Assembly (NCBI RefSeq): GCF_002848005.1
Contig: NZ_PKHX01000005.1
Span: 62,001-126,000 of the forward strand
DNA: 64,000 nucleotides
Reading direction: 5' to 3'
DNA from: Varibaculum cambriense
GTDB taxonomy: Bacteria; Actinomycetota; Actinomycetes; Actinomycetales; Actinomycetaceae
Below the pieces are notes generated by a model, which did not search any database, was not told the origin of the DNA, and saw only the letters and a list, made by a program, of their open reading frames with translations. The position numbers and the translations under genes were made by a program. Positions 3,395 to 25,340 of this stretch are shown in pieces. Position 1 is the first letter of the stretch. The number at the start of each line of letters is the position of its first letter.

Positions 3395-3502
3395 GCGCGG
3401 AAAATCGGTTTTTCCTCCCGCCCAAGAATTTGGAAAACGTAGCGACGTTTTCCAAATTCTTATGCCCACCGCGCCTGCTCGGATAAAACCGATTCCCCGC
3501 GC
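3395..3502. repeat. Structured intergenic repeat element, copy 1
   Basis: A nested double hairpin. The inner stem pairs 3424-3440 with 3445-3461 (17 bp, perfect) around the loop AGCG. The outer stem pairs 3395-3411 with 3486-3502 (15 of 17 positions). Conserved linkers TTCCTCCCGCCC and ATGCCCACCGCGCC lie between the stems. The second copy at 8031-8132 has the same linkers but different, compensating stem bases. It lies between the GNAT gene and the convergent OPT gene end. It could be a structured RNA, a terminator-like element or a small REP/MITE-like repeat; the function is unknown. Confidence 0.75.
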
Positions 3503-7980: not shown

Positions 7981-8045
7981 CTGCCCGTACGGGGTCGTAA
8001 GGTGTCGCTGATAGCTTCCACGACCTTGTTCGGGCAGCGATTTTT
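7981..8045 (+). terminator. Probable rho-independent terminator of the symporter operon
   Basis: Outer arms CTGCCCG (7981-7987) and CGGGCAG (8031-8037) pair, as do inner arms GGTCGT and ACGACC; TTTTT follows at 8041-8045. The 3' arm is also needed for the outer stem of the structured repeat at 8031-8132, so the two folds exclude each other. Confidence 0.55.
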
Positions 8046-8132
8046 CCTCCCGCCCAAGAAATCCGGAAAACGTCGCTACGTTTTCCGGATTTCTTATGCC
8101 CACCGCGCCCACTCGGATAAAATTGCCGCCCG
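8031..8132. repeat. Structured intergenic repeat element, copy 2
   Basis: This has the same layout as 3395-3502. The inner stem pairs 8056-8073 with 8078-8095 (18 bp, perfect) around the loop CGCT, the reverse complement of the other copy's loop. The outer stem pairs 8031-8044 with 8119-8132 (12 Watson-Crick pairs, one G-T, one mismatch). The linkers TCCTCCCGCCC and ATGCCCACCGCGCC are retained, and CTCGGATA also recurs. Stem bases differ from copy 1 on both sides so that pairing is kept. Confidence 0.75.
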
Positions 8133-11678: not shown

Positions 11679-11738
11679 GCCTTTGCGATTATTACGTGCA
11701 TAGGAAATTGCCTCAGAACTGGCCTCTTGGCGCTCCTA

Positions 11739-14700
11739 ATGAGGTTTACTAAGAGAGTGGAGTCAGAATTTCCGCTTTCTAAAGCAGCATTATCAATTTG
11801 GGCAAAAACTAATTTCTGGCATTCGGCTCCTCCGGATGGCGTAAACAAGCAATGGTTGCCGCTTGCTGTACATATGGCTGATTCGGGGGAAGTCGCTGAG
11901 CTGATTTGGAAAAAGTATCTCTCACCACGGCAGCGGCGATTATTGGCAGATCCGTTGCTGCAGGTAAAGACCATTGAAGAGCCTTCGCGGAAAGCCTTAA
12001 CTTTACTAAAGCTAATCGTGGGCGCACATGACATTGGAAAATGTTCGCCCATGTTCCTTACCCAGAACACCGAACTCTATGAACGAGTTTTGAAACACTC
12101 GCTAACCAGGTGCGAGCGGGCAGAGGAAATGCGGGGATCAAGTCCGCACTCATGGATAGGGGAAATAGCGTTTGAAAAATGGCTAGAGGCACGCTGGAAT
12201 CATGGTGATCCGGACAGGAAATATGTTTCTGCGACTGCTAAACAGTTGGGGTCTATTATCGGTGCTCATCATGGCCGCCCGGTGTCTTTGCGGCGACATG
12301 ATGATATGACTAATCCCAATCTCCCTCTGGCTGTTAATGGTGATAAAACCTGGAAAAAGATCCGCAGGGAATTATTGGATTGGTGGATGAACTGGACTGA
12401 TAGCCAAGAGATTATTCGCCAATGTAAAGGGTTAGTTTTCCCAACTACCTGGCAAAGCCTGGTGGCGGGCATTACCGTGATGGCCGACTGGATCGCCTCG
12501 AATCAAGAACTTTTCCCGCTAGTCGACTGGAATGAGCTATATCCGGAAAGGTTGCTATCTCCTGATCATCATCGCCAGCGCACTAAAGCTGCTTGGGAAA
12601 AGCTGCACTTGCCGCCCTCCTGGCAGCCGGAAATACTTTCTCAAGACCCCGATCAGCTGTTGCAAACCCTATTCGCTTTAGGCGCTGATGCTCATGCGCG
12701 TCCCGCGCAGGTGGCAGCGGTAGAATCCGCTCAAAAAATGACGTTACCCGGCATGATGATAATTGAGGAGGTTATGGGCGCGGGGAAGACCGAGGCGGCG
12801 TTAATGGCGGCCACCATTTTGGCGAAGCGGGCAGGAACTTCCGGGGTGTTGGTAGCTCTACCGACAAAAGCCACTACCGATGCCATGTTTAATCGAGTAG
12901 TTGAATGGGCGCAGACCTCGGCGAAGAATGGTTTTAGCCTAAAGCTGCAGCACGGAAATGCCGCTTTAAACAGTGCATATAAGAAAATTCAATACGGAAG
13001 AATCGCCAGTGCCGGAAATGCGGTTTCCCAAGGACAGAGCTCTTCCATGGGCATCGATGAAGAGTCTGCTCACAGCCGGCAGCCGGCAGTAGTGCATCGC
13101 TGGTTTAGCAAGAAGGCTGCGCTGCTAGCCTCCGTAGTGGTTTGTACGGTGGATCACCTGCTGTTTTCGGCATTGCAAACCAAGCATGTGAGTTTGCGAC
13201 ATCTGGGCATTAGCGACAAAGTCGTCATCATTGACGAAGTGCATAGCTATGACGTCTACACCAGCGAATTCCTGAAGAGAACTGTGCAGTGGTTGGGGGC
13301 ATTCGGGGTGCCGGTAATTGCTTTATCGGCCACTCTCACTCGGAGGGCGCGCGAAGAGCTGTTTGCAGCCTATAAAAAAGGGAAAGGGCTGAAACGGCCT
13401 GCTCAGGAGAACAAAGGTTCGACACCGTTTGATACTTCGGTATTTGCGGCGATGCGGAAACCTCAGTCCACAGGAGGCGGGAAGGTTTCAGTCCCAGCCC
13501 CAGAATCTAACGCGGACTCGCCTTCACAAAAAACCGTCTATCCAGCACTTTCTTACTCGGATGCGCAGGGGGTTAAAGTTCGTCCTTTGCCCGTCTTGGC
13601 TACCAAGAAGATCGAAGTTGAGCATTGGGAGGGCGATGCGAGGCTGCTAACGGATCTTGAAAAACGCCTCCAAAATGGGGGATGTGCCCTGGTGGTACGC
13701 AATACGGTCGCTAATGCGCAACGTACCTATGAAACTTTGCGGGGTGTATTTCGGGATGAAGTCAGTTTGGTGCATTCTCGTTTTACCCAGCAAGATCGTC
13801 AAGATAATGATGAGTGGCTGGTGCGTACCTTTGGGAAGCCCGGAAAATCTTGCCGTCCTAAGCGGGCAATCGTGGTGGGTACCCAGGTGGTTGAGCAGAG
13901 CCTCGATATTGACTTCGACGTGCTTTACAGTGATCTAGCACCTATTGATTTGCTGTTTCAGCGCATGGGGCGGGTTCATCGTCATAAAAGGGAAGCTCGC
14001 CCTCCTGCGGTTAGACAGCCCCGCTGCATCCTAATGGGGATCCCCAGAAAAGATAGTTCAAAGCCGCAGGTTGATAGGGGTTCAATCTTTGTTTATGGCG
14101 AGGACGTGTTGTTGCGGACTGCGGCTTATGTTCTTGACAGGGAGGTCGCGGGGGAGTCTTGGGAGATTCCCACGGATATCGGGACAGCGGTGGCTGCTGT
14201 CTATGAGGAAACCGTTGCTACCCCCGATTCTTGGGGTAAAACTTTGCAGCGCACTAAGAAAAGCAAAGTAGATAAGGCGCATTCTAAGACCGAGGGTGCG
14301 GCTATGGGGCTGTTGGCGCCGCCTCGCAACACTGATACCGCCTCCTTGATTGACTGGCTAGGGGGCAACAATCCGGATAGTGATCCCGATGAGATGGGAA
14401 TCATTGGCGTTCGTGATGGTGATTCCGGAGTGGAAGTGCTGCTGGTCGCACAACAGGGAGAGGGCATTGCGACGATTCCTACTGATCGTCACCCAGAATC
14501 TCGGGAAATCGATTTACAAGAATTGCCGAGCGGCACGCTGCGGGAGAGACTAGTGCGTTCCTTGGTGTCTATTCCTTCAACCCGGCTTCGGGTGAAAGGT
14601 CGGGCACTTGAGGAGGTAATCGATGAATTCATCCACGAGCTAGAAAAGGAAACTCGTGACCTGGGGGTGAATTGGGAAAAAGATTTTATGCTGCGGGGGC

Positions 14701-14810
14701 AATTAGTTGTCCCGCTACGAGGCGGGGAGTACCGAACCGGGTTTGGGAAAACTATTTCCTATCGCCGCGATGTGGGTTTACAAATTTTTGATACTGATTC
14801 GGATGTATAA
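11739..14810 (+). CDS. cas3: CRISPR-associated helicase/nuclease Cas3 (type I-E)
   Basis: Cas3 is recruited by target-bound Cascade and unwinds and shreds DNA. From the ATG at 11739 it has about 1023 residues. The HD nuclease domain comes first: WLPLAVHMAD near 40, VGAHDIGK near 95 and IIGAHHGRP near 175. The SF2 helicase follows, with the Walker A loop VMGAGKTEA (about 345), the IIDEVHSY box (about 496), ALSATLTRRA (about 528) and the final LLFQRMGRVHRH (about 738). A frame-compatible TTG at 11727 would add four residues. Neither start has a good ribosome site. A 318-bp gap with its own regulatory RNA candidate separates cas3 from the Cascade operon. Confidence 0.93.
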   Translation: MRFTKRVESEFPLSKAALSIWAKTNFWHSAPPDGVNKQWLPLAVHMADSGEVAELIWKKYLSPRQRRLLADPLLQVKTIEEPSRKALTLLKLIVGAHDIGKCSPMFLTQNTELYERVLKHSLTRCERAEEMRGSSPHSWIGEIAFEKWLEARWNHGDPDRKYVSATAKQLGSIIGAHHGRPVSLRRHDDMTNPNLPLAVNGDKTWKKIRRELLDWWMNWTDSQEIIRQCKGLVFPTTWQSLVAGITVMADWIASNQELFPLVDWNELYPERLLSPDHHRQRTKAAWEKLHLPPSWQPEILSQDPDQLLQTLFALGADAHARPAQVAAVESAQKMTLPGMMIIEEVMGAGKTEAALMAATILAKRAGTSGVLVALPTKATTDAMFNRVVEWAQTSAKNGFSLKLQHGNAALNSAYKKIQYGRIASAGNAVSQGQSSSMGIDEESAHSRQPAVVHRWFSKKAALLASVVVCTVDHLLFSALQTKHVSLRHLGISDKVVIIDEVHSYDVYTSEFLKRTVQWLGAFGVPVIALSATLTRRAREELFAAYKKGKGLKRPAQENKGSTPFDTSVFAAMRKPQSTGGGKVSVPAPESNADSPSQKTVYPALSYSDAQGVKVRPLPVLATKKIEVEHWEGDARLLTDLEKRLQNGGCALVVRNTVANAQRTYETLRGVFRDEVSLVHSRFTQQDRQDNDEWLVRTFGKPGKSCRPKRAIVVGTQVVEQSLDIDFDVLYSDLAPIDLLFQRMGRVHRHKREARPPAVRQPRCILMGIPRKDSSKPQVDRGSIFVYGEDVLLRTAAYVLDREVAGESWEIPTDIGTAVAAVYEETVATPDSWGKTLQRTKKSKVDKAHSKTEGAAMGLLAPPRNTDTASLIDWLGGNNPDSDPDEMGIIGVRDGDSGVEVLLVAQQGEGIATIPTDRHPESREIDLQELPSGTLRERLVRSLVSIPSTRLRVKGRALEEVIDEFIHELEKETRDLGVNWEKDFMLRGQLVVPLRGGEYRTGFGKTISYRRDVGLQIFDTDSDV

Positions 14811-14850
14811 ACCGGTATTTAGCTGTAGCTTTAATGGTGTGTAATCGGTG

Positions 14851-14929
14851 TGGAAAATCCCCGCAAAAGCGGGGCAGAGGTATTGCGTGGTTCCCACACA
14901 CGGATCATCTCAAGTTTTCTCGAGCTTCG
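14851..14929 (-). ncRNA. Candidate crRNA-like autoregulatory RNA (mini-CRISPR, CreR/CreA type)
   Basis: Read on the minus strand, this is pseudo-repeat 1 (14929-14901), a 21-nt pseudo-spacer (14900-14880) and pseudo-repeat 2 (14879-14851). The real repeat folds as stem CCCCGC, loop ACCT, stem GCGGGG, then the handle ATGATCCG. Pseudo-repeat 1 has stem CTCGAG, loop AAAA, stem CTTGAG (one G-U), then the handle ATGATCCG, identical 8 of 8. Pseudo-repeat 2 has stem CCCCGC, loop TTTT, stem GCGGGG, identical 12 of 12, then a drifted handle ATTTTCCA. So the segments kept in a mature type I-E crRNA are exactly those conserved. An extended -10-like TGATAACAT lies just upstream (14933-14941), predicting a start at about 14927. 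Expression is not shown. Confidence 0.72.
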
Positions 14930-14932
14930 TTT

Positions 14933-14941
14933 ATGTTATCA
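14933..14941 (-). promoter_or_regulatory. Possible extended -10 of the crRNA-like RNA
   Basis: On the minus strand TGATAACAT resembles an extended -10 (TGN then TAACAT, 4 of 6 to TATAAT). It is placed so that transcription would start within 1-3 nt of the 5' end of pseudo-repeat 1. No good -35 is visible. Confidence 0.35.
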
Positions 14942-14991
14942 GTGGTGATGACTAGCTTGAGCGAAAAGAACGACAATAAATCGAAAATAAG

Positions 14992-15019
14992 TTCAACAAA
15001 AATATTTAAATACTAGTAT
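14992..15019 (+). promoter_or_regulatory. Putative promoter of the cas8e-cas2 operon
   Basis: TTCAAC (14992-14997) and TAGTAT (15014-15019) are spaced by 16 bp in an A+T-rich stretch and could serve as -35 and -10. The predicted start at about 15026 would leave a leader of about 100 nt before cas8e. Both hexamers are imperfect, so the promoter call is tentative. Confidence 0.45.
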
Positions 15020-15032
15020 TTCCCACACAGTT
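15020..15032 (-). promoter_or_regulatory. Seed-match target of the crRNA-like RNA, with PAM-like AAC
   Basis: The plus strand carries TTCCCACACA at 15020-15029, the same 10 bp as 14891-14900 in the pseudo-spacer. On the minus strand this is a protospacer start TGTGTGGGAA preceded by AAC (15032-15030), the side and size of a type I-E PAM. Pairing stops after position 10, apart from positions 13 and 14. The site overlaps the expected transcription start of the Cascade operon, so bound Cascade would block it. Confidence 0.65.
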
Positions 15033-15128
15033 GCGATAAAGTTATCAATCAAGGGTGCTGTTTAAAAACAGTGCTGAATTTTTAGCAAATTCTTAGGGAC
15101 TAAAGATTGGTTCTAGAAGGGAGGTACG

Positions 15129-16832
15129 GTGACTGAGGAATCGAAGTTTAACCTACTTGATGAGTCCTGGGTTCCGGTTGCGTTCTGCAATGGTAAACAT
15201 CAGGTGCTTCCTCTGCGTGATTGCTTTTTGCTTTCGCCCGAGATTCGAAGATTATCTTTCGGTCAGGATGCCGTAAGTTTCGCGGTACTTCGAATCATGG
15301 TAGCGATAATGCAGCGAACGTTGTATGTTGCCAGCGCGGCAAGCAGGGGATGGAATGTGTCGACGTGGCAGCGGGCTCATGAAAATCCGAAAGAAACCTT
15401 GGGTTTGGTGGAGCAGTATCTTGAAACGTGGAAGGACCGATTCTTTTTATTCGATCCTGAACGGCCTTTCTTTCAGCATCCCACGGTTCATAAGGCGGAT
15501 AACACCTATTTTAAGATAGATAAATTTCTCTCCGATGTACCAGATAACAAGCAACTTTTCACTATGCGTATTGGTGCGGGAACAGAGAATCTGTCCTATC
15601 CAGATGCGGCTGCGCAGCTTATTCACTTGCAAGCATTCGCGCCATCAGGGACATTATCTGGTGCTGTGGGGGATGAAAGAGTTAAACAGGGCAAGGGGTA
15701 TCCAATCGGAACTGGTTGGGTAGGTGCCCAAGGTGGGGTTTACGTGGAGGGGGAAACTCTGTTTTCAACTCTGATGCTTAATACCCTTGCCATTGGGCAG
15801 CCCGGACAAGAAAGCGAAGAAGCCCAGGCCGCAGGAATCATTACTACCAATCCGGAAGTTGATTTACCTGTCTGGGAACGTGAGGAACAGCCGGTGGGGC
15901 AACGGGCAGAAATCTATCCCCAGGGGCTGGCCGATATGCTCACTTGGCAATCTCGACGAGTAAGGCTAATTGACGGCGGTAACTCAGTAATCGGTGTAGT
16001 ACTTTGCCAGGGCGATAGATTAGGAGAAAAGAAAACTTCTGCGTTTGCTAACGCACAGATCCGGGAACCTATGGGAGTATGGCGATTTTCTGAGCCTCAA
16101 ACCAAGAAAAACAAACTGATAACTTATATGCCGCGCAAGCATGATCCCAGTCGCGCAATTTGGCGGGGAATTACATCCCTATTGCCCGAGTTTCCTGGGA
16201 AAACCGCAACTTACAAAGAGGTGCAGGTAGAAGCAAGCCTGCCACCAGCGGTAGTGCGCTGGGTGGGCTGGTTGCTTTCAAACGGTTATCTGCCGGAAGC
16301 GACAACCTATAGGTTGCGATCTTGTGGGTATGAATATGGTGACCAAGAATCATATTTTGCGGAAGCAATCAGCGATTATCTGGCAGTCCCCCCTAGTCTA
16401 TTGACTGGCAAAGACCAAAAATCCTTGTACTTAGTGAAAACCGGGATGGAACTGCTTGATGAGCTAGCTAGTGCGATTGCTTCGTTAGCGGGGAATCTGC
16501 AGCGTGCCATTGGGGCTGAGGACACCAGCCTGGCTACTCGGACAGCGCGGGAGCGCTTTTACTCAGAAATTGACAGTCAGTTCCGAGCCTGGCTGCTAGG
16601 AGTGGGGTCTGCAGAATATGACTTAGATTTGCTTTGGAAATCCGGATACGGGATTGCTAAAAAACTGGAAACTGAACTGCTAGCAGCTGCTCCAGATGAA
16701 GCAATGAAGGGAAGAGTAAAAAACGGAACGATTTTTGATCTTCCTAACTGTGTTAAATGGTTTGCAATCAAACTTTCGAAGACGAAATCAAAGGTCTCAG
16801 TTTTCAATGAGTCGAAGGAGAATCATGAGTGA
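15129..16832 (+). CDS. cas8e: Cascade large subunit Cas8e (Cse1/CasA)
   Basis: A 567-residue large subunit of type I-E Cascade, which reads the PAM and recruits Cas3. The N-terminus FNLLDESWVPVAFCNGKHQ and the following LRDCFLLSPEIRRLSFGQD are typical of Cse1. The middle block FDPERPFFQHPTVH (about 112-125) is also characteristic. The start is GTG with the ribosome site GGGAGG 5 nt before it. It is the first gene of a tight seven-gene operon ending in cas2; its stop overlaps the start of cse2 by 8 nt. The preceding gap carries the candidate autoregulatory RNA. Confidence 0.95.
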   Translation: MTEESKFNLLDESWVPVAFCNGKHQVLPLRDCFLLSPEIRRLSFGQDAVSFAVLRIMVAIMQRTLYVASAASRGWNVSTWQRAHENPKETLGLVEQYLETWKDRFFLFDPERPFFQHPTVHKADNTYFKIDKFLSDVPDNKQLFTMRIGAGTENLSYPDAAAQLIHLQAFAPSGTLSGAVGDERVKQGKGYPIGTGWVGAQGGVYVEGETLFSTLMLNTLAIGQPGQESEEAQAAGIITTNPEVDLPVWEREEQPVGQRAEIYPQGLADMLTWQSRRVRLIDGGNSVIGVVLCQGDRLGEKKTSAFANAQIREPMGVWRFSEPQTKKNKLITYMPRKHDPSRAIWRGITSLLPEFPGKTATYKEVQVEASLPPAVVRWVGWLLSNGYLPEATTYRLRSCGYEYGDQESYFAEAISDYLAVPPSLLTGKDQKSLYLVKTGMELLDELASAIASLAGNLQRAIGAEDTSLATRTARERFYSEIDSQFRAWLLGVGSAEYDLDLLWKSGYGIAKKLETELLAAAPDEAMKGRVKNGTIFDLPNCVKWFAIKLSKTKSKVSVFNESKENHE

Positions 16833-17457
16833 TCAAACGCAAGCAGAGCAATCAAGTAAGCATTATTACAGTGAGCTTGGTTGGACAGTGATACGGCGAA
16901 TTGAATCCTTGCAGCAGGGGTATTTAAACGATTCCCCGCAAGCTCGTGCTGATTTGGCTGAGCTGCGCAAGGCATCCCAAGATCTCTATGTTTTTCCTCC
17001 CTCGGTGTGGCATTTAGTTGATTCCCCAGAAACGGAAAGGAATACCTCTTCGGATCTGTTGACTGCCAAGGAGCAGGCAATTCGCGGTGCCTTGTGGCTA
17101 TATGCTCGTCATCAACGGGGCAGGACGACCCCCATGCATCAACGGGGAGTAAACCTGGGAGAAGCTGTCTCTAGGCTGGCATGGCTGGAAGGCATGGATA
17201 ACGAAAAAGCAGTGCGACGTCATTTTGACGCGGCGGTTATGTCCACTACTTTTTCCGGTTTTTTCAACCATTTGAAAGGACTAATCGGTCAGCTGGGATC
17301 AACGCGTGCCGCGATTGCTATTGACTACGGGCTGCTGGCGCAAGACCTTTATCTCTTCGCCATCCCCGGGGGTAGACAAAAAGTTACCCTCTCCTGGGCG
17401 AGGGGCTACGCCCGACAAAAAAACGAAAAATCAGAAACCAACTCACAGACCAAATAA
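16825..17457 (+). CDS. cse2: Cascade small subunit Cse2 (CasB/Cas11e)
   Basis: From the ATG at 16825, preceded by GAAGGAGAATC, the protein has 210 residues, normal for Cse2. It is helical and basic, ending in a charged tail (RGYARQKNEKSETNSQTK). Typical segments are AIRGALWLYARHQRGRTTPM (about 81-100) and ARLAWLEGMD-like LAWLEGMDNEKAVRRHFDAA (about 115-134). Two copies sit along the Cascade backbone and stabilise the R-loop. The longer in-frame extension into cas8e was not used because the ribosome site and the ATGAGTGA overlap favour 16825. Confidence 0.92.
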   Translation: MSDQTQAEQSSKHYYSELGWTVIRRIESLQQGYLNDSPQARADLAELRKASQDLYVFPPSVWHLVDSPETERNTSSDLLTAKEQAIRGALWLYARHQRGRTTPMHQRGVNLGEAVSRLAWLEGMDNEKAVRRHFDAAVMSTTFSGFFNHLKGLIGQLGSTRAAIAIDYGLLAQDLYLFAIPGGRQKVTLSWARGYARQKNEKSETNSQTK

Positions 17458-17468
17458 AGGAGATTATC

Positions 17469-18611
17469 ATGACTAGCTTTATCGATTTTCATATTTTGCA
17501 AAACGTTCCCCCCTCTTGCGTAAACCGAGATGATTCCGGAAGCCCCAAGACTGCAACTTTTGGAGGACAACGCCGGGCACGAGTTTCCTCGCAGTGTTGG
17601 AAACGGGAGACCAGGCAAGTATTTGGAGACTTCCTCAATCAAGAGGATCTAGGCTATCGGACCAATCGAATTGTGGATTTGCTGGCTGAACAGATAGTGG
17701 CACAAAACCAAGATCTGGAACCGGAATCTGCGAAACTGGCGGTAGATGTATTTAAAGCGCTGGGAATCAAGTTAAAAGCCCCGCGTGCAAAGAAAGATGC
17801 CGAGGAAGAAGTCGGCAATGATGTTTCTACCTATTTAGTTTTCCTGTCATCCTTGCAGCTGCGGCAACTGGCGGAATACGCGGTCGAAAAAGCAGCTAAC
17901 GAAGAAAAGCCAAAGAAACGCGAAATTGAAAAACTGTTGAATCGGAATCACTCAGTAGATTTGGCTCTTTTCGGCCGCATGGTAGCTGACGACGCATCAG
18001 TAAATGTCGATGCCTCTTGCCAGGTAGCACACGCAATTTCTACCCACAGCGTAGAAAACGAATTCGATTTCTTCACCGCAGTTGATGACGTAAAGTCCCA
18101 AGATCAGGAAGAAACCGATGCGGGAGCGGGGATGATGGGAACGGTTGAGTTCAACTCGTCCACCCTATATCGCTACGCCACTATTAACCTGGATATGCTG
18201 CGGGAAAACCTGGGAAGCGACGATGCTACTGTACGGGCAGTTGATGCGTTCGCTCAGGCATTTGTCAAGGCTATGCCCACCGGCAAGCAAAACACTTTTG
18301 CCAATCGGACGCTTCCGGAAGCAATCTACGTTTCCGTGCGTGATGATCAGCCAGTTTCGCTGGTAGGAGCGTTCGAGAACGCGGTTACCTCCCGGGAAGA
18401 TACGGGATTCTTAGCTCCCTCAGTATCTCGGCTGGTCAAAGAAGCCGGTGACATCGAAGACGCCTATGGGGTCAAGCCTCTTGCCCAGTTTACCTGCGGG
18501 GTCGGAGACTCACGGGAACAGCTCCGGCAAATCCAGGAACCAGTGGCGTTCCCTCAGTTAGTTTCAGAGTTAGACAACCTGGTGACTGAACTGCTTACCA
18601 AGGGTGAATAA
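17469..18611 (+). CDS. cas7e: Cascade backbone subunit Cas7e (Cse4/CasC)
   Basis: A 380-residue RAMP protein; several copies polymerise along the crRNA, each covering a 6-nt step. The N-terminus FIDFHILQNVPPSCVNRDDS and the following GGQRRARVSSQCWKR are hallmark sequences of Cas7e. The C-terminal third includes VDAFAQAFVKAMPTGKQNTF and LVGAFENAV. The ATG has a strong AAAGGAG ribosome site. It lies 11 nt after cse2 and 2 nt before cas5e. Confidence 0.95.
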   Translation: MTSFIDFHILQNVPPSCVNRDDSGSPKTATFGGQRRARVSSQCWKRETRQVFGDFLNQEDLGYRTNRIVDLLAEQIVAQNQDLEPESAKLAVDVFKALGIKLKAPRAKKDAEEEVGNDVSTYLVFLSSLQLRQLAEYAVEKAANEEKPKKREIEKLLNRNHSVDLALFGRMVADDASVNVDASCQVAHAISTHSVENEFDFFTAVDDVKSQDQEETDAGAGMMGTVEFNSSTLYRYATINLDMLRENLGSDDATVRAVDAFAQAFVKAMPTGKQNTFANRTLPEAIYVSVRDDQPVSLVGAFENAVTSREDTGFLAPSVSRLVKEAGDIEDAYGVKPLAQFTCGVGDSREQLRQIQEPVAFPQLVSELDNLVTELLTKGE

Positions 18612-18613
18612 CC

Positions 18614-19384
18614 ATGAAGAATATGCTTTTGACCCTCAAGGGTCCGATGCAGTCATGGGGAACCTCCTCTCGATTTACTAAGCGAAGGACGTCCTCGGAG
18701 CCCTCCAAAAGTGGGATCATCGGTCTGCTAGCGGCAGCACAAGGACGCCGCCGGGTTGATCCGGTTGAGGATTTAGTTGACCTGAAAATGGCGGTTCGGA
18801 TTGATCAGCCGGGAACTCGGGAACGAGATTTTCATACCACGCTTTCCTTTGATGGCAAGACCGCGTATCCTCTTTCTGACCGATATTACCTGGCAGACGC
18901 GGTATTTGTTGTCGGGCTCAGCGGGGAAACCGCCTTGATTGAAGCCCTTAATGAGGCTTTGGCTAAACCAAAGTTTCCGCTGTATTTAGGGCGAAGGGCA
19001 TTTCCACCTATGACGCCTATCCGGCCGAAGCTCTCAGAGGGGAATCTGGTAGATGACCTTGACGTTTACCCCTGGCAGGCGGCCTCGTGGTATCAAAAGA
19101 AAGTATCGCGAAAAACTACCTGGACATCCTCTTCACCCCTCGACCTCGAAAACGAAAAAGTGAGTTTAGAGGTGGTTGCGGATCTAGATTTACTGCCGGA
19201 GGACAGACGTGACGACTGCATTTTCGATCAAGTCCACGATGTTCCGCTCAGTTTTGATTCCCATCATCGCCAATATGAGTGGCGCGACGTAGTCAGGTGG
19301 AAATGCGAGGTGCCGACCGATATTGCAGCTACCGAAACCGAGCCATTGTTCTTAACCACCCACAATCCGGGAGGTATGTGGTGA
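18614..19384 (+). CDS. cas5e: Cascade subunit Cas5e (CasD)
   Basis: A 256-residue RAMP protein that caps the 5' handle of the crRNA, here expected to be ATGATCCG. Signature segments are LTLKGPMQSWGTSSRFTKRR (about 6-25), KSGIIGLLAAAQGRRR (about 32-47) and LYLGRRAFPPMTPIRP (about 123-138). The start is 2 nt after the cas7e stop and its own stop overlaps the cas6e GTG by 4 nt, showing translational coupling. Confidence 0.94.
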   Translation: MKNMLLTLKGPMQSWGTSSRFTKRRTSSEPSKSGIIGLLAAAQGRRRVDPVEDLVDLKMAVRIDQPGTRERDFHTTLSFDGKTAYPLSDRYYLADAVFVVGLSGETALIEALNEALAKPKFPLYLGRRAFPPMTPIRPKLSEGNLVDDLDVYPWQAASWYQKKVSRKTTWTSSSPLDLENEKVSLEVVADLDLLPEDRRDDCIFDQVHDVPLSFDSHHRQYEWRDVVRWKCEVPTDIAATETEPLFLTTHNPGGMW

Positions 19385-20088
19385 GCGAAATTTATCTTTC
19401 ACGCTGTGCTTTAAACCCGTGGAGGCGGGGAGCTGCCAGGCTGCTCGCCTCTATGGAGCGGATGCACGCGGCTATCTTGCAGAACTGTTTCCATGATTCT
19501 CAATGGGAGGGAGGGGAACCTCCGCGGATTCTTTGGCGTCTGGATCGCCATCAAAAGGGTTATTACCTATATATTCAGTCGCCGATACGTCCGGATTTAA
19601 CCCAACTTGTTGAAGAGGCTGGCTGGCCAGAAATAGAGTCCACGTACGGAGTGAAAAGCTATCAGCATTTCTTGGAGCAACTCACGGAGGGAACCAGCTG
19701 GAACTTTAGGCTAGTGGCAACTCCCACTCGGGCAGTGAAAGGCGAAGGTGATAAACGCTCTAAGCGGATTCCCATCGTTAAGGATGAAGACCGCGTTAAT
19801 TGGTTGGCGTCTAGAGCAGAGGGTTGGGGGTTTGAGATTCCCCAGGTGTCTGTTAATCCATCCGAGGGTGAAGAAAATGATTTGGCAGTAGCAATCGTGG
19901 AAAAAGAACGCATTCGCTTCCAGCGAGGAAAATCGGGGAAACCGGGATCTTTAGTTACCCTAAACCGGGTTGCATTCGAAGGAATTTTGACTGTTAAGGA
20001 TCCTGTGGTGCTTCGCAGCGCCATGCAAAATGGTTTAGGAGCGGCCAAGGCTTACGGGTGTGGTCTGCTAACTCTGGCTCCTAGGTAG
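19381..20088 (+). CDS. cas6e: crRNA-processing endoribonuclease Cas6e (Cse3/CasE)
   Basis: From the GTG at 19381, overlapping the cas5e stop as GTGA, the protein has 235 residues. It begins SEIYLSRCALNPWRRGAARL, the usual Cas6e start, and ends with the glycine-rich RNA-binding loop GLGAAKAYGCGLLTLAP. His in ASMERMHAAIL (about residue 29) is a plausible catalytic residue. Cas6e cuts pre-crRNA below the CCCCGC/GCGGGG stem and remains bound to it. That stem is kept exactly in pseudo-repeat 2 at 14851-14879. Confidence 0.94.
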   Translation: MSEIYLSRCALNPWRRGAARLLASMERMHAAILQNCFHDSQWEGGEPPRILWRLDRHQKGYYLYIQSPIRPDLTQLVEEAGWPEIESTYGVKSYQHFLEQLTEGTSWNFRLVATPTRAVKGEGDKRSKRIPIVKDEDRVNWLASRAEGWGFEIPQVSVNPSEGEENDLAVAIVEKERIRFQRGKSGKPGSLVTLNRVAFEGILTVKDPVVLRSAMQNGLGAAKAYGCGLLTLAPR

Positions 20089-20091
20089 TTA

Positions 20092-21051
20092 GTGATGGGA
20101 GACGGCCTCGCAAATAAGCCGGTTCCCCGGCAAGCATTGCCGCGCGTTGAAGACCGCTGGTCATTCCTCTATGCGGAACGCTGCATAGTTCACCGCGCAG
20201 AAAATGCTTTGACCCTGCGGGATGAACAGGGTACGGTGCATGTCCCGGCCGCAACGATATCATCGCTGCTGCTGGGGCCAGGATCAACGATTTCTCACCA
20301 GGCGATGAGCCTGTTAGGTGAATGTGGGGTGAGTGTGGTGTGGGTCGGAGAAAACGGGGTGCGCTTCTATGCCAGTGGTCGCAGCTTGGCTGATTCCAAT
20401 GCCTTGCTGCAGCTGCAAGCGCGTTGCTCGTCCTCGCAAAATGAAAGAATCAAAGTAGCCCGGGCAATGTACCAAATGCGTTTTGGTAATGAGGACGTGG
20501 AAGGGCTCTCCATGCGGCAGTTGCGGGGTCGGGAAGGTTACCGCATGAAGAAAACGTATCGGCGCTGGGCGGATGAATATGGGGTTCCTTGGGCAGGTAG
20601 AGTTTTTGATTCCCAAAATTCCCAGGTTAGCGATCCGGTGAACGAGGCGCTTTCTGCTGGTAACGCCTCCCTATATGGAATTGCTCATGCGGTCATCTGT
20701 GCTCTGGGTTGTTCGCCAGGGTTAGGAATTGTGCATACAGGGCGTTCGCGTTCGTTTGTGTTTGATATCGCGGATCTTTATAAAGCGGAATTCGTAATCC
20801 CGTTAGCATTCCAGATTGTTTCCGAGGGTGCGCAAGACGTTGCTACTAGAATGCGGATTAAGCTGCGCGACCGGGTGTTTCAAGAGGGACTGCTGAAACG
20901 GTGTGCCCAAGATATTATCTTCTTGCTTACCGGAGAGCGGGACGCGTCCGTCGACGTTAAAGAGAACCGGATTCGCCTGTGGGATTACTATCAAGGAAAT
21001 GTTGAGGGCGGCTCTAATTATGCAGCTGAGACGGGGGACGCTCCGTTTTGA
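20092..21051 (+). CDS. cas1: CRISPR adaptation integrase Cas1 (type I-E)
   Basis: Cas1e, 319 residues, integrates prespacers together with Cas2. The first codon is GTG at 20092; an ATG follows at 20095. Family sequences include RVEDRWSFLYAERCIVHRAE (about 17-36), LLGPGSTISHQAM and the active-site region SLYGIAHAVICALGCSPGLG (about 196-215), then IVHTGRSRSFVFDIADLYKA with conserved His and Asp. The gene starts 3 nt after cas6e and overlaps cas2 at TGATG. Confidence 0.95.
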   Translation: MMGDGLANKPVPRQALPRVEDRWSFLYAERCIVHRAENALTLRDEQGTVHVPAATISSLLLGPGSTISHQAMSLLGECGVSVVWVGENGVRFYASGRSLADSNALLQLQARCSSSQNERIKVARAMYQMRFGNEDVEGLSMRQLRGREGYRMKKTYRRWADEYGVPWAGRVFDSQNSQVSDPVNEALSAGNASLYGIAHAVICALGCSPGLGIVHTGRSRSFVFDIADLYKAEFVIPLAFQIVSEGAQDVATRMRIKLRDRVFQEGLLKRCAQDIIFLLTGERDASVDVKENRIRLWDYYQGNVEGGSNYAAETGDAPF

Positions 21052-21455
21052 TGGTTTTAATCTTGACGGCCTGCCCGCCGGGACTGCGCGGATATATAAC
21101 GCGTTGGCTTCTAGAGGCATCCCCGGGAGTTTTCGTGGGAAGATTGTCTGCCCGGGTAAGGGAGAATCTATGGGATTTGGTGGTCGCTGAGCGGAAACAG
21201 GGTAAGGCGCTGCTGATATACAGCACTAATAATGAGCAAGGCTATGCCGTGCGCTCGGCTGGGCATAAATGGAATCCAGTGGAACTAGAAGGGATGACTT
21301 TGCTGCAGCATCCCGAGCGGAGAAAATCTGATAACCCGGCAGGGGAGGGGAATGCGCGAGAGCCGGGAGCGTGGCAAGGGAAATCTAATGGTAATGAAGG
21401 GTATGGCTGGTCAATAGCTGCTAGGCGCCGGAAAATGCGTAGGCGTAAACCCTAA
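21051..21455 (+). CDS. cas2: CRISPR adaptation protein Cas2e
   Basis: From the ATG at 21051, sharing one base with the cas1 stop, the protein has 134 residues. The first 85 are typical Cas2e: VLILTACPPGLRGYITRWLL, SPGVFVGRLSARVRENLW, and KALLIYSTNNEQGYAVRSAG with GHKWNPVELEG. The last 45 or so residues form a Gly/Asn/Arg-rich tail not seen in the short Cas2e proteins, probably disordered and basic (RRRKMRRRKP). The CRISPR leader begins directly after the stop. Confidence 0.93.
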   Translation: MVLILTACPPGLRGYITRWLLEASPGVFVGRLSARVRENLWDLVVAERKQGKALLIYSTNNEQGYAVRSAGHKWNPVELEGMTLLQHPERRKSDNPAGEGNAREPGAWQGKSNGNEGYGWSIAARRRKMRRRKP

Positions 21456-21526: not shown

Positions 21527-22653
21527 AAGTGCCCCGCACCTGCGGGGATGATCCGCCATGATCAAAAACTCATGCCCACCCCAAGGAAAGTGCCCCGCAC
21601 CTGCGGGGATGATCCGCTGCCACCCCTGAATTCCTAACGAAATTCCCGAAGTGCCCCGCACCTGCGGGGATGATCCGTATCCGGTGACGCCAAAGCACCA
21701 GGGCATCATAAGTGCCCCGCACCTGCGGGGATGATCCGCACTCGACCGAGCGGATCACCTGGTTAACCCCAAGTGCCCCGCACCTGCGGGGATGATCCGC
21801 ACTGACGGGCAGACATTTACGCGGCCTCCAAAAGTGCCCCGCACCTGCGGGGATGATCCGTTTTAACCCGGCATCCTGAGGTAGGCGGCGTCAAGTGCCC
21901 CGCACCTGCGGGGATGATCCGTCTTTAAAGAACCCCAGTCAGTAGGAGTGACGAAGTGCCCCGCACCTGCGGGGATGATCCGCTATTCCAAACCGGAGAA
22001 GATATTCATCTATAAAGTGCCCCGCACCTGCGGGGATGATCCGCTCATCCTCAGTACATAGAATAACCTCCCTAAAAGTGCCCCGCACCTGCGGGGATGA
22101 TCCGCAACCGCCGATGCCGCGCTAATCCCCTGGACTAAGTGCCCCGCACCTGCGGGGATGATCCGTTCATTGCCCGGCTCGCGGATATTCTTACCCGAAG
22201 TGCCCCGCACCTGCGGGGATGATCCGCATCTTTTAGCATTTGGTCAGGTACCGGCCTAAAGTGCCCCGCACCTGCGGGGATGATCCGTGTCCCAACATCC
22301 CCGGGTGGTGAGGCGCCCGAAGTGCCCCGCACCTGCGGGGATGATCCGTAATCCTCTATCGCCCTACTAGCGGCTGAAAGAAGTGCCCCGCACCTGCGGG
22401 GATGATCCGTAGAGGAGGCAGTGGAATGTTGAGAAATAAAGAAGTGCCCCGCACCTGCGGGGATGATCCGTTGATGAGCGCGATTAGTGAATCTAGGGAC
22501 AGAAGTGCCCCGCACCTGCGGGGATGATCCGTTGAAGAACGTTCCGGATGGAATACTCGTCAGAAGTGCCCCGCACCTGCGGGGATGATCCGCCGGCAGG
22601 CTAATCGCAACCGTGCGAATCGAAAAGTGCCCCGCACCTGCGGGGATGCCATA
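21527..22653 (+). CRISPR. Type I-E CRISPR array, 19 repeats and 18 spacers
   Basis: Repeats of 29 bp recur with an exact 61-bp period from 21527 to 22625, and every spacer is 32 bp. Each repeat is AAGTG, stem CCCCGC, loop ACCT, stem GCGGGG, handle ATGATCCG. Repeats 1-18 look identical; the last (22625-22653) keeps the stem-loop but its handle has decayed to ATGCCATA, marking the leader-distal end. The array reads on the plus strand from the cas2 side. No two spacers are alike. All 18 begin with C or T (nine each). Confidence 0.99.
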
Positions 22654-22709
22654 AATTTATTTCTATTCCCGGAGCGGCGAGATTGTTACTCACAAGCGAA
22701 TTATGGTGT

Positions 22710-25205: not shown

Positions 25206-25250
25206 AACCTGTTCGAACCTTTCGTAGGTGACAAGGTAAGTATAAGCTAT

Positions 25251-25340
25251 TAGGTAAATTGGCGTGATTTTGTTAGGTAATTTGGCGCGATTAGATTAGG
25301 TAAAATGGCGCGATTTTGTTAGGTAAAATGGTGAAACTGC
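25251..25340. repeat. Four tandem 23-bp iterons
   Basis: Units start at 25251, 25274, 25297 and 25320. Each begins TAGGTAA and continues with WWTGGCGYGATT in the first three; the fourth diverges after TAGGTAAAATGG. The block lies in the 161-bp gap between the start of the DUF4143 ATPase gene and the end of mnhG. Iterons spaced by about two helical turns usually bind a protein cooperatively. Autoregulation of the ATPase gene is a reasonable guess. Confidence 0.75.

What the first reader, a model, noticed from the sequence alone, without database searches (positions are those of the whole stretch)
14851..14929. Degenerate mini-CRISPR between cas3 and cas8e: a candidate crRNA-like autoregulator of a type I-E system
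Seen: on the minus strand, two pseudo-repeats flank a 21-nt pseudo-spacer. Pseudo-repeat 1 keeps the 8-nt handle ATGATCCG exactly, while its stem has drifted to CTCGAG/CTTGAG but still pairs. Pseudo-repeat 2 keeps the stem CCCCGC/GCGGGG exactly, while its handle has drifted to ATTTTCCA. A mature type I-E crRNA consists of the handle from the upstream repeat, the spacer, and the stem from the downstream repeat, so exactly the retained parts are conserved. Known: CreA/CreR RNAs (types I and V) and tracr-L (type II) are crRNA-like RNAs that make effectors repress their own promoters. The spacer is 11 nt shorter than the 32-nt array spacers, about two 6-nt Cas7 steps, so a shortened Cascade is expected. 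Inference: this locus encodes such an RNA. I am not aware of this element being described here.
Basis: partly seen in the sequence, partly recalled or inferred. Interest (0 to 1): 0.93.

Follow-up and report, generated by a model that had tools for sequence, protein, structure and literature searches.

The report
CRISPR guide RNA repressing cas genes
A tiny decayed CRISPR unit beside a bacterial type I-E immune system most likely makes a shortened guide RNA that steers the CRISPR complex onto the promoter of its own genes and turns them down; this kind of self-regulation is already known, but here a shortened guide and its target site can be traced through many related species.

Summary
On the minus strand at 14924-14851 lie a pseudo-repeat keeping the 8-nt handle, a 21-nt guide, and a pseudo-repeat keeping the stem. 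The finding names no target; one lies in the same gap. Guide positions 1-10 match 15029-15020 exactly, beside an AAC PAM, 100 nt before cas8e; none of 20,000 shuffles gave so long a match. Varibaculum vaginae has the same element with a changed guide and a correspondingly changed target. A strict scan found it, with target, in 30 of 69 Cas8e-bearing relatives examined. Over these 30 and the window, matching is near complete in the seed and raised to about position 17, but near chance at positions 6, 12 and 18, which Cascade leaves unpaired. Guides are 20-21 nt (22 of 31) or 31-32 nt (9 of 31); one near-identical pair differs by exactly 12 nt. Best reading: a type I-E CreR (cas-regulating RNA), a published kind, here with a guide about two Cas7 steps short. 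No RNA, binding or repression was measured. A hidden toxin (CreTA) is the main rival.

The parts
14933..14941 (-). Putative extended -10 (TGA-TAACAT) of the creR promoter, 8 nt before the first pseudo-repeat stem
   Evidence: Read by eye from sequence. Same layout in V. vaginae (TGA-TAGAAT, 8 nt) and in a third species, G002 (TGA-TAACAT, 8 nt). The simple promoter scan found no sigma-70 site in 14780-15140, so this is inferred.
14909..14924 (-). Stem-loop of pseudo-repeat 1 (CTCGAG-AAAA-CTTGAG), 6 bp with one G-U
   Evidence: identical in V. vaginae and G002. A 6-bp stem right before the handle is present in 18 of 31 elements; background 1.2%.
14901..14908 (-). 5' handle ATGATCCG kept from pseudo-repeat 1
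   Evidence: Identical to the handle of the array repeats.
14880..14900 (-). 21-nt guide (pseudo-spacer) of the predicted CreR RNA
   Evidence: Positions 1-10, 13 and 14 match the site upstream of cas8e.
14859..14879 (-). 3' part kept from pseudo-repeat 2: CTCTG + stem CCCCGC-TTTT-GCGGGG; predicted 3' end of the mature RNA at 14859
14851..14858 (-). Degenerate second handle ATTTTCCA, predicted to be removed by Cas6e
   Evidence: 5 of 8 positions as in handle 1; mean over 31 elements 2.7 of 8.
15020..15029 (-). Target protospacer TGTGTGGGAA (guide positions 1-10, all matched); positions 13-14 match too
   Evidence: Core TTCCNACACAGTT (+ strand) shared with both V. vaginae copies, N being guide position 6.
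15030..15032 (-). PAM AAC of the target
   Evidence: In the V. vaginae array the nucleotide after ATGATCC is C 31, G 15, T 8, A 0 of 54. AAC is the commonest target PAM, 20 of 31; hits were chosen to have AA, so only the third base is informative.
15037..15042 (+). Putative -10 (TAAAGT) of the cas8e promoter, just downstream of the target
   Evidence: Inferred by eye and from the alignment with V. vaginae TAAAAT; not found by the simple scan.
15129..16832 (+). cas8e (Cse1), first gene downstream of the target
   Evidence: Pfam PF09481, E 5.1e-90.
16735..21455 (+). cas11, cas7, cas5, cas6e, cas1, cas2: rest of the presumed target operon
   Evidence: Pfam matches.
11727..14810 (+). cas3, upstream of the creR element
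   Evidence: Pfam Cas3_HD and Cas3 C-terminal domains.
21527..22654 (+). CRISPR array, 19 repeats, 61-nt period

Best explanation
The element is a creR gene of the type I-E system. A promoter on the minus strand makes a short precursor (inferred). Cas6e cuts it at the two pseudo-repeat stems (inferred), leaving an RNA of about 50 nt: 8-nt handle, 21-nt guide, 21-nt 3' part with the stem. It loads into a Cascade shortened by about two Cas7 subunits (inferred from guide length). That Cascade binds the AAC-flanked seed match upstream of cas8e; the complementarity is shown in sequence, the binding is inferred. Bound there it blocks the promoter of the cas8e-cas2 operon without a full R-loop, so Cas3 does not cut (inferred). 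Ordinary crRNAs and anti-CRISPRs would relieve the repression by taking Cascade away, as reviewed for CreR (passages in PMC12737573).
For: Seed match 10/10 with AAC PAM; 0 of 20,000 shuffles as long. V. vaginae carries the element with guide TGTGTAGGAATTA and a 13/13 AAC-flanked target before a cas8e start remnant; a second copy before the intact cas8e differs from the guide, over these 13, only at position 6. Scan: 34 hits from 105 handle+stem occurrences against 12 from 1953 with decoys. Match fraction over 31 pairs: positions 1-4 1.0, 5 .94, 6 .32, 7-11 .84-1.0, 12 .26, 13 .87, 14 .71, 15 .68, 18 .19; positions 6 and 12 onward were not used to choose hits. Position 12 against 13: Fisher p 1.9e-6, related elements not down-weighted. 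Cascade crRNA does not pair with every sixth nucleotide (passage in PMC13122317). In all 33 of 36 checked rows that had an identifiable first cas gene, the target is upstream of it (L031 copy 1 is 7.4 kb before the intact cas8e). Handle kept in repeat 1 and 3' part kept in repeat 2 is the pattern described for creA (passages in PMC8501985).
Against: No RNA, processing, binding or expression data. The simple scan found no sigma-70-type promoter at either site. A weak terminator-like hairpin lies between target and cas8e (15054-15075), leaving room for a short separate transcript. 11 of 31 elements have fewer than 5 of 6 paired bases in the first stem, so Cas6e cutting at repeat 1 may not be general. 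More than half of the relatives examined did not score: 30 of 69 genomes passed the strict scan, 32 counting two looser cases. L140 (G175) has the same guide as L137 but no target within 700 nt. 2 of 14 high-scoring non-cognate pairs are between unlike guides, so some chance matches of this strength occur.
Confidence: 0.86

Rival explanations
1. CreTA-like module: the crRNA-like RNA represses a small toxin RNA or peptide made from the short stretch between the target and cas8e, so the cell becomes addicted to Cascade.
For: 86 nt lie between the presumed -10 and the cas8e start, holding a 13-codon GTG reading frame seen by eye and a terminator-like hairpin (15054-15075). In 15 of the 33 mapped rows the target lies about 217-556 nt before cas3, room for a small gene.
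Against: By eye in the alignment, the short frame and hairpin are not kept in either V. vaginae copy, while the target core is. In V. vaginae a target copy sits directly before the intact cas8e, about 7 kb from creR. In 13 of the 33 mapped rows the target is within about 80 nt of the cas start (distances extrapolated from tblastn).
Confidence: 0.08
2. Decayed remnant of an ordinary CRISPR array or an isolated spacer, with no present function.
For: The repeats are degenerate, and in G002 the element remains although the stretch with the target and cas8e, cas11 and cas7 is gone.
Against: Guide and target co-vary between species, with 6-nt periodicity across 31 pairs. Guide lengths fall into two classes. 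Drift would not be expected to preserve these.
Confidence: 0.03
3. The stem 14859-14874 plus T-run is simply an intrinsic terminator of a minus-strand transcript and the handle is chance.
For: In the window the minus-strand hairpin CCCCGC-TTTT-GCGGGG is followed by ATTTT.
Against: The T-run is absent in V. vaginae (ATACCC) and G002 (ATCATCC), and the scan did not list this hairpin as a terminator. Handle, guide and target evidence is left unexplained.
Confidence: 0.02

Closest known systems
CreR, cas-regulating RNA (Liu et al. 2023, Cell Host Microbe 31:1481; types I-B, I-E, V-A)
   Same: Mini-CRISPR beside the cas genes; partial complementarity to a cas promoter; no toxin needed (seen through passages of PMC13131331, PMC12948488 and PMC12737573).
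   Different: Here the guide is 21 nt, and 22 of 31 elements found have 20-21 nt. The paper itself is not held, so I cannot say whether short type I-E guides are already in it.
CreA of CreTA (Haloarcula, Halobacterium, Acinetobacter)
   Same: Two degenerate repeats in most cases; handle kept from the first and 3' part kept from the second (passages in PMC8501985); partial match to a promoter.
   Different: CreA represses a toxin RNA; here the target sits before cas8e and no conserved toxin was seen.
tracr-L of type II-A (recalled)
   Same: A noncanonical guide makes the effector repress its own promoter.
   Different: Different class, effector and RNA architecture.
Racr, phage RNA anti-CRISPRs (PMC10651486; start of abstract in search listings)
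   Same: Solitary repeat-like units outside arrays.
   Different: Racrs are phage-encoded inhibitors; this element sits between the host's cas genes and has a target before cas8e.

Membership tests
CreR (type I-E) | Mini-CRISPR with retained 5' handle and 3' stem next to the cognate cas locus | tested here: met
CreR (type I-E) | PAM-flanked partial complementarity to a cas promoter region | tested here: met
   10/10 seed with AAC PAM, 100 nt upstream of cas8e. That this stretch is the promoter is inferred; the promoter scan found none.
CreR (type I-E) | Guide and target conserved or co-varying in relatives | tested here: met
   Non-cognate pairs scoring 9 or more: 14 of 930, of which 12 are between guides of the same similarity cluster.
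CreR (type I-E) | Mature crRNA-like RNA made by Cas6 | not testable with these tools
   No expression data.
CreR (type I-E) | Cascade-dependent repression of cas, relieved by crRNAs or anti-CRISPRs | not testable with these tools
   Needs experiment.
CreTA | Small toxin RNA or protein under the repressed promoter | tested here: inconclusive
   A short frame and hairpin in the window are, by eye, not kept in V. vaginae, but such modules are described as poorly conserved in sequence (passage in PMC8501985).
Ordinary CRISPR array | Near-identical repeats and full-length spacers | tested here: not met
   Two diverged repeats; guide 21 nt against 32 nt in the array.

The most novel reading that the evidence does not exclude
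Actinomycetaceae type I-E systems keep a dedicated repressor form of Cascade. CreR guides are held at two lengths, about 20-21 and 31-32 nt, so that most assemble a Cascade with two fewer Cas7 subunits that can repress but does not license Cas3. Evolution moves between the forms in whole two-subunit (12-nt) steps, and the guide-target pairs record Cascade's unpaired sixth positions in their mismatches.
Probability: 0.42. Interest if true: 0.75.

Novelty: new member of a known kind. Interest (0 to 1): 0.57.

Why it matters
If true, it places self-repression by a guide RNA in the type I-E systems of many Actinomycetaceae. It also gives a sequence-only signature (PAM, seed, mismatches at every sixth position, guide length in 12-nt steps) by which such RNAs can be sought in other genomes. 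The two length classes raise a directly testable question: whether nature uses a shortened Cascade as a cut-free repressor, as engineered type I-B Cascade does with spacers of 24 nt or less (abstract and passages in PMC10989794).

Tried and rejected
Rfam: no family matched 14700-15200 at E up to 1. The simple promoter scan found nothing in 14780-15140. Terminator, array-remnant and toxin readings were considered (see rivals).

A seed-masking hairpin between the guide seed and the stretch after repeat 2 is predicted in the window (9 bp, p about 0.034). V. vaginae has 7 bp with a compensating change at position 6 (p about 0.088) and G002 about 6 bp read by eye. Of 31 elements tested, 2 had p below 0.05, the window and L122, so I do not build on it.

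Pattern searches of 396 order-level and 394 class-level genomes (overlapping sets; 47 and 48 matches listed) for short mini-CRISPRs mostly hit, by eye, array-like or GC-rich sequence. Loci were capped, so not every match was examined: the fetched loci held 64 elements, of which 6 had a seed score of 9 or more: L137, L139, L141, L149, L160 (lengths 25-26) and L162 (length 22, GC-rich, judged chance). L137 and L139 repeat known family members. L149 and L160, from two other families, have the target about 72 and 105 nt before cas3. L141 shows no cas-like gene to the right of it in the 1.5 kb held (reading frames only) and is not counted. L140 carries the same guide as L137 but gave no target within 700 nt.

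Dropped before counts: L049, one hit judged chance. L064 and L070 have good seed matches but failed the strict scan and are not in the 31; other hits that failed the stem rule (for example L100, seed 10 of 10) are not counted either. L069 (gap 446 nt) showed none. Four of the 73 Cas8e genomes (G078, G132, G168, G207) were not fetched. The region around the cas3 start was fetched for 59 of the 69 genomes.

Papers asked for but not held: Liu et al. 2023 and Kuznedelov et al. 2016.

Full report
WHAT IS THERE. The window most likely lies in a Varibaculum (Actinomycetaceae). The one relative that the Cas8e protein found in named genomes is Varibaculum vaginae, 84% identical; the nearest genome held shares 35% of sampled words and is grouped in the same genus as the genome that matches that V. 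vaginae contig. The type I-E locus runs cas3, a 318-nt gap, cas8e, cas11, cas7, cas5, cas6e, cas1, cas2, then an array of 19 repeats. Repeat 1 keeps the handle ATGATCCG and has another stem that still pairs. Repeat 2 keeps the stem and has lost the handle. The guide between them is 21 nt against 32 in the array.

THE TARGET. The finding names no target. Guide positions 1-10 match minus-strand 15029-15020 without a mismatch, and the three bases before it are AAC. It lies 100 nt before the cas8e start and just upstream of a plausible -10 (15037-15042, inferred by eye; the promoter scan found none). Apart from the element itself it is the only site in the 64 kb with 8 or more contiguous guide bases. 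0 of 20,000 shuffles of 14910-15128 reached 10 beside an AAN PAM; the highest was 8. AAC is a sensible PAM: in the V. vaginae array the base that follows ATGATCC is C 31, G 15, T 8, A 0 of 54.

RELATIVES IN THE GENUS. Of 6 genus genomes held, 1 has Cas8e and 2 have the handle plus seed word. V. vaginae (L031) carries the element just after cas3 with guide TGTGTAGGAATTAACC... and the same 26-nt handle-to-stem distance. Its target before a truncated cas8e start matches 13 of 13 with PAM AAC. About 7 kb further on, after other reading frames, the intact cas8e has its own upstream copy, AAC-TGTGTTGGAATTA, which differs from the guide over these 13 bases only at position 6. In the three-way alignment the target core TTCCNACACAGTT is one of the best-conserved islands of the upstream region. 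The third species, G002, keeps creR, but window stretch 14987-18707, with the target, cas8e, cas11 and cas7, has no counterpart there. The stretch TGA-TANNAT followed by 8 nt and the first stem is kept in all three species, suggesting that the transcript starts at the stem (inferred).

RELATIVES IN THE FAMILY. 73 of 213 family genomes have Cas8e. I fetched the cas8e neighbourhood of 69 of these 73 and, for 59 of the 69, the region around the cas3 start (60 regions). The strict scan asked for a handle, a GC stem starting 14-45 nt on, and a seed match (9 of 10 or better over positions 1-5 and 7-11) beside AAN within 600 nt. It gave 34 hits in 32 loci from 105 handle+stem occurrences (L077 and L120 count twice); decoy handles in the same loci gave 12 from 1953. 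Without the stem rule it was 50 of 2185 against 422 of 76,063. After dropping one hit judged chance (L049), 31 elements remain: the window and 30 genomes. Two further good seed matches, L064 and L070, are not in the 31. Of 36 rows checked for position (the 31, these two, and three from other searches), 33 had an identifiable first cas gene and in all 33 the target is upstream of it, about 18-556 nt away apart from L031 copy 1. Guides tested against the other loci's regions scored 9 or more in 14 of 930 pairs, 12 of them between guides of one similarity cluster.

THE CASCADE SIGNATURE. Over the 31 pairs the match fraction is 1.0 at positions 1-4.94 at 5.32 at 6.97 at 7, 1.0 at 8.84 at 9, 1.0 at 10.87 at 11.26 at 12.87 at 13.71 at 14.68 at 15.42 at 16.52 at 17.19 at 18 and .10-.35 from 19 to 30. 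Positions 1-5 and 7-11 are high by selection; positions 6 and 12 onward were not used to choose the hits. Position 12 against 13 gives Fisher p 1.9e-6; positions 13-15 together against 25% give p 4e-24; these treat related elements as independent. Averaging over 20 clusters of similar guides leaves the profile the same (.41 at 6.25 at 12.85 at 13.15 at 18). A 2026 study states that Cascade crRNA does not pair with every sixth target nucleotide (passage in PMC13122317). So the pairing appears to have been shaped by use inside a type I Cascade, and it fades near position 17. The window's own pair matches at 1-10, 13 and 14.

GUIDE LENGTH. Handle-to-stem distance over the 31 is 25 (17), 26 (5), 36 (1) and 37 (8), with none from 27 to 35. 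Taking 5 nt before the stem, as in the array repeat, guides are 20-21 or 31-32 nt: about 12 nt apart, two 6-nt Cas7 steps (step size recalled). L118 and L119 are nearly identical across the element and its flanks but differ by a 12-nt insertion or deletion inside the guide. A pattern search that allowed any spacing of 20-34 nt after ATGANCC was followed up in the loci fetched, 64 elements. Of the 6 with a seed score of 9 or more, 5 have distance 25-26, including two in other families next to cas3 (L149, L160); the sixth, L162 at 22, is GC-rich and judged chance. Cas7 copy number is reported to vary with crRNA length, three to six in E. coli and T. fusca (passage in PMC6828817). In type I-B, spacers of 24 nt or less repress without interference or priming (abstract and passages in PMC10989794). 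Against a cut-free reading, the title of Kuznedelov et al. 2016 (seen only in reference lists) says E. coli Cascades with shortened spacers are capable of interference; the paper is not held.

PROPOSED MECHANISM. Shown from sequence: anatomy, target, PAM, co-change, periodicity, length classes. Inferred: transcription, Cas6e processing, a shortened Cascade, promoter block, no Cas3 cutting, relief by crRNAs and anti-CRISPRs. 11 of 31 elements have a poor first stem (fewer than 5 of 6 bp); in those the 5' end may come from the transcription start or another nuclease.

WHAT IS KNOWN. CreRs that autorepress type I-B, I-E and V-A Cas proteins through partial promoter complementarity are published (Liu et al. 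2023; seen only through passages of PMC13131331, PMC12948488 and PMC12737573; the paper itself is not held). Handle-1 and 3'-part-2 retention is described for creA (passages in PMC8501985), and repeat degeneration is said to protect such units from recombination (passages in PMC9458426). So this is a new member of a known kind. Searches for CreR, cas-regulating RNA, mini-CRISPR with type I-E, and Varibaculum with CRISPR listed no paper on this element by title or start of abstract; the lists were capped, the library holds only open papers, and I did not open the one Varibaculum genome announcement that mentions CRISPR (PMC12509646). This is weak evidence of absence. Whether short type I-E guides or their 12-nt classes are in print I cannot say.

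RIVALS. CreTA is the serious one, since a toxin RNA can be tiny and unconserved. The V. vaginae arrangement and the targets within about 80 nt of a cas start in 13 of 33 rows speak against it, but in 15 of 33 the target is 217-556 nt away, so the question stays open. Remnant and terminator readings fail on co-variation.

Noticed in passing
window 21527-22654: In all 18 complete repeats ATGATCC is followed by G and then C or T (9 each). In V. vaginae the base after ATGATCC varies (C 31, G 15, T 8, A 0), and it varies in G002 too. The window's array seems to have fixed one more repeat base, with a pyrimidine after it.
   Followed up: partly
L031 407-8001: V. vaginae has about 7 kb of other reading frames between creR and cas8e, with the cas8e upstream region and gene start present on both sides; a cas8e start remnant is left at about 742.
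   Followed up: partly
L194 5350-11736: Third Varibaculum species (G002): decaying type I-E locus with creR, cas3 in two pieces in different frames, cas8e, cas11, cas7 and cas6e not found, a cas5 piece running into a cas1 piece, and the array kept.
   Followed up: partly
L136 1160-1400 (G097 contig C69; more on C71): An array-like run of type I-E-like repeats every 49-51 nt (spacers about 20-22 nt), beside genes that look phage-like by eye; G097 is not among the Cas8e hits. Only short, weak similarity to Streptomyces phages was found. Could be a mobile short-spacer array.
   Followed up: partly
window 14846-14857 against 14891-14899: The stretch after pseudo-repeat 2 is complementary to the guide seed (9 bp). 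V. vaginae shows 7 bp with a compensating change; not general in the family (2 of 31 at p below 0.05).
   Followed up: yes
L077 1481-1503 and L120 1085-1112: Two tandem target sites for one CreR upstream of cas3.
   Followed up: no
window 3406-3488 and 8038-8122: Paired repeats about 4.63 kb apart (families D3 and D4).
   Followed up: no
window 25249-25331: Three copies, 23 nt apart, of a TTAGGTAA-type repeat (family D2).
   Followed up: no
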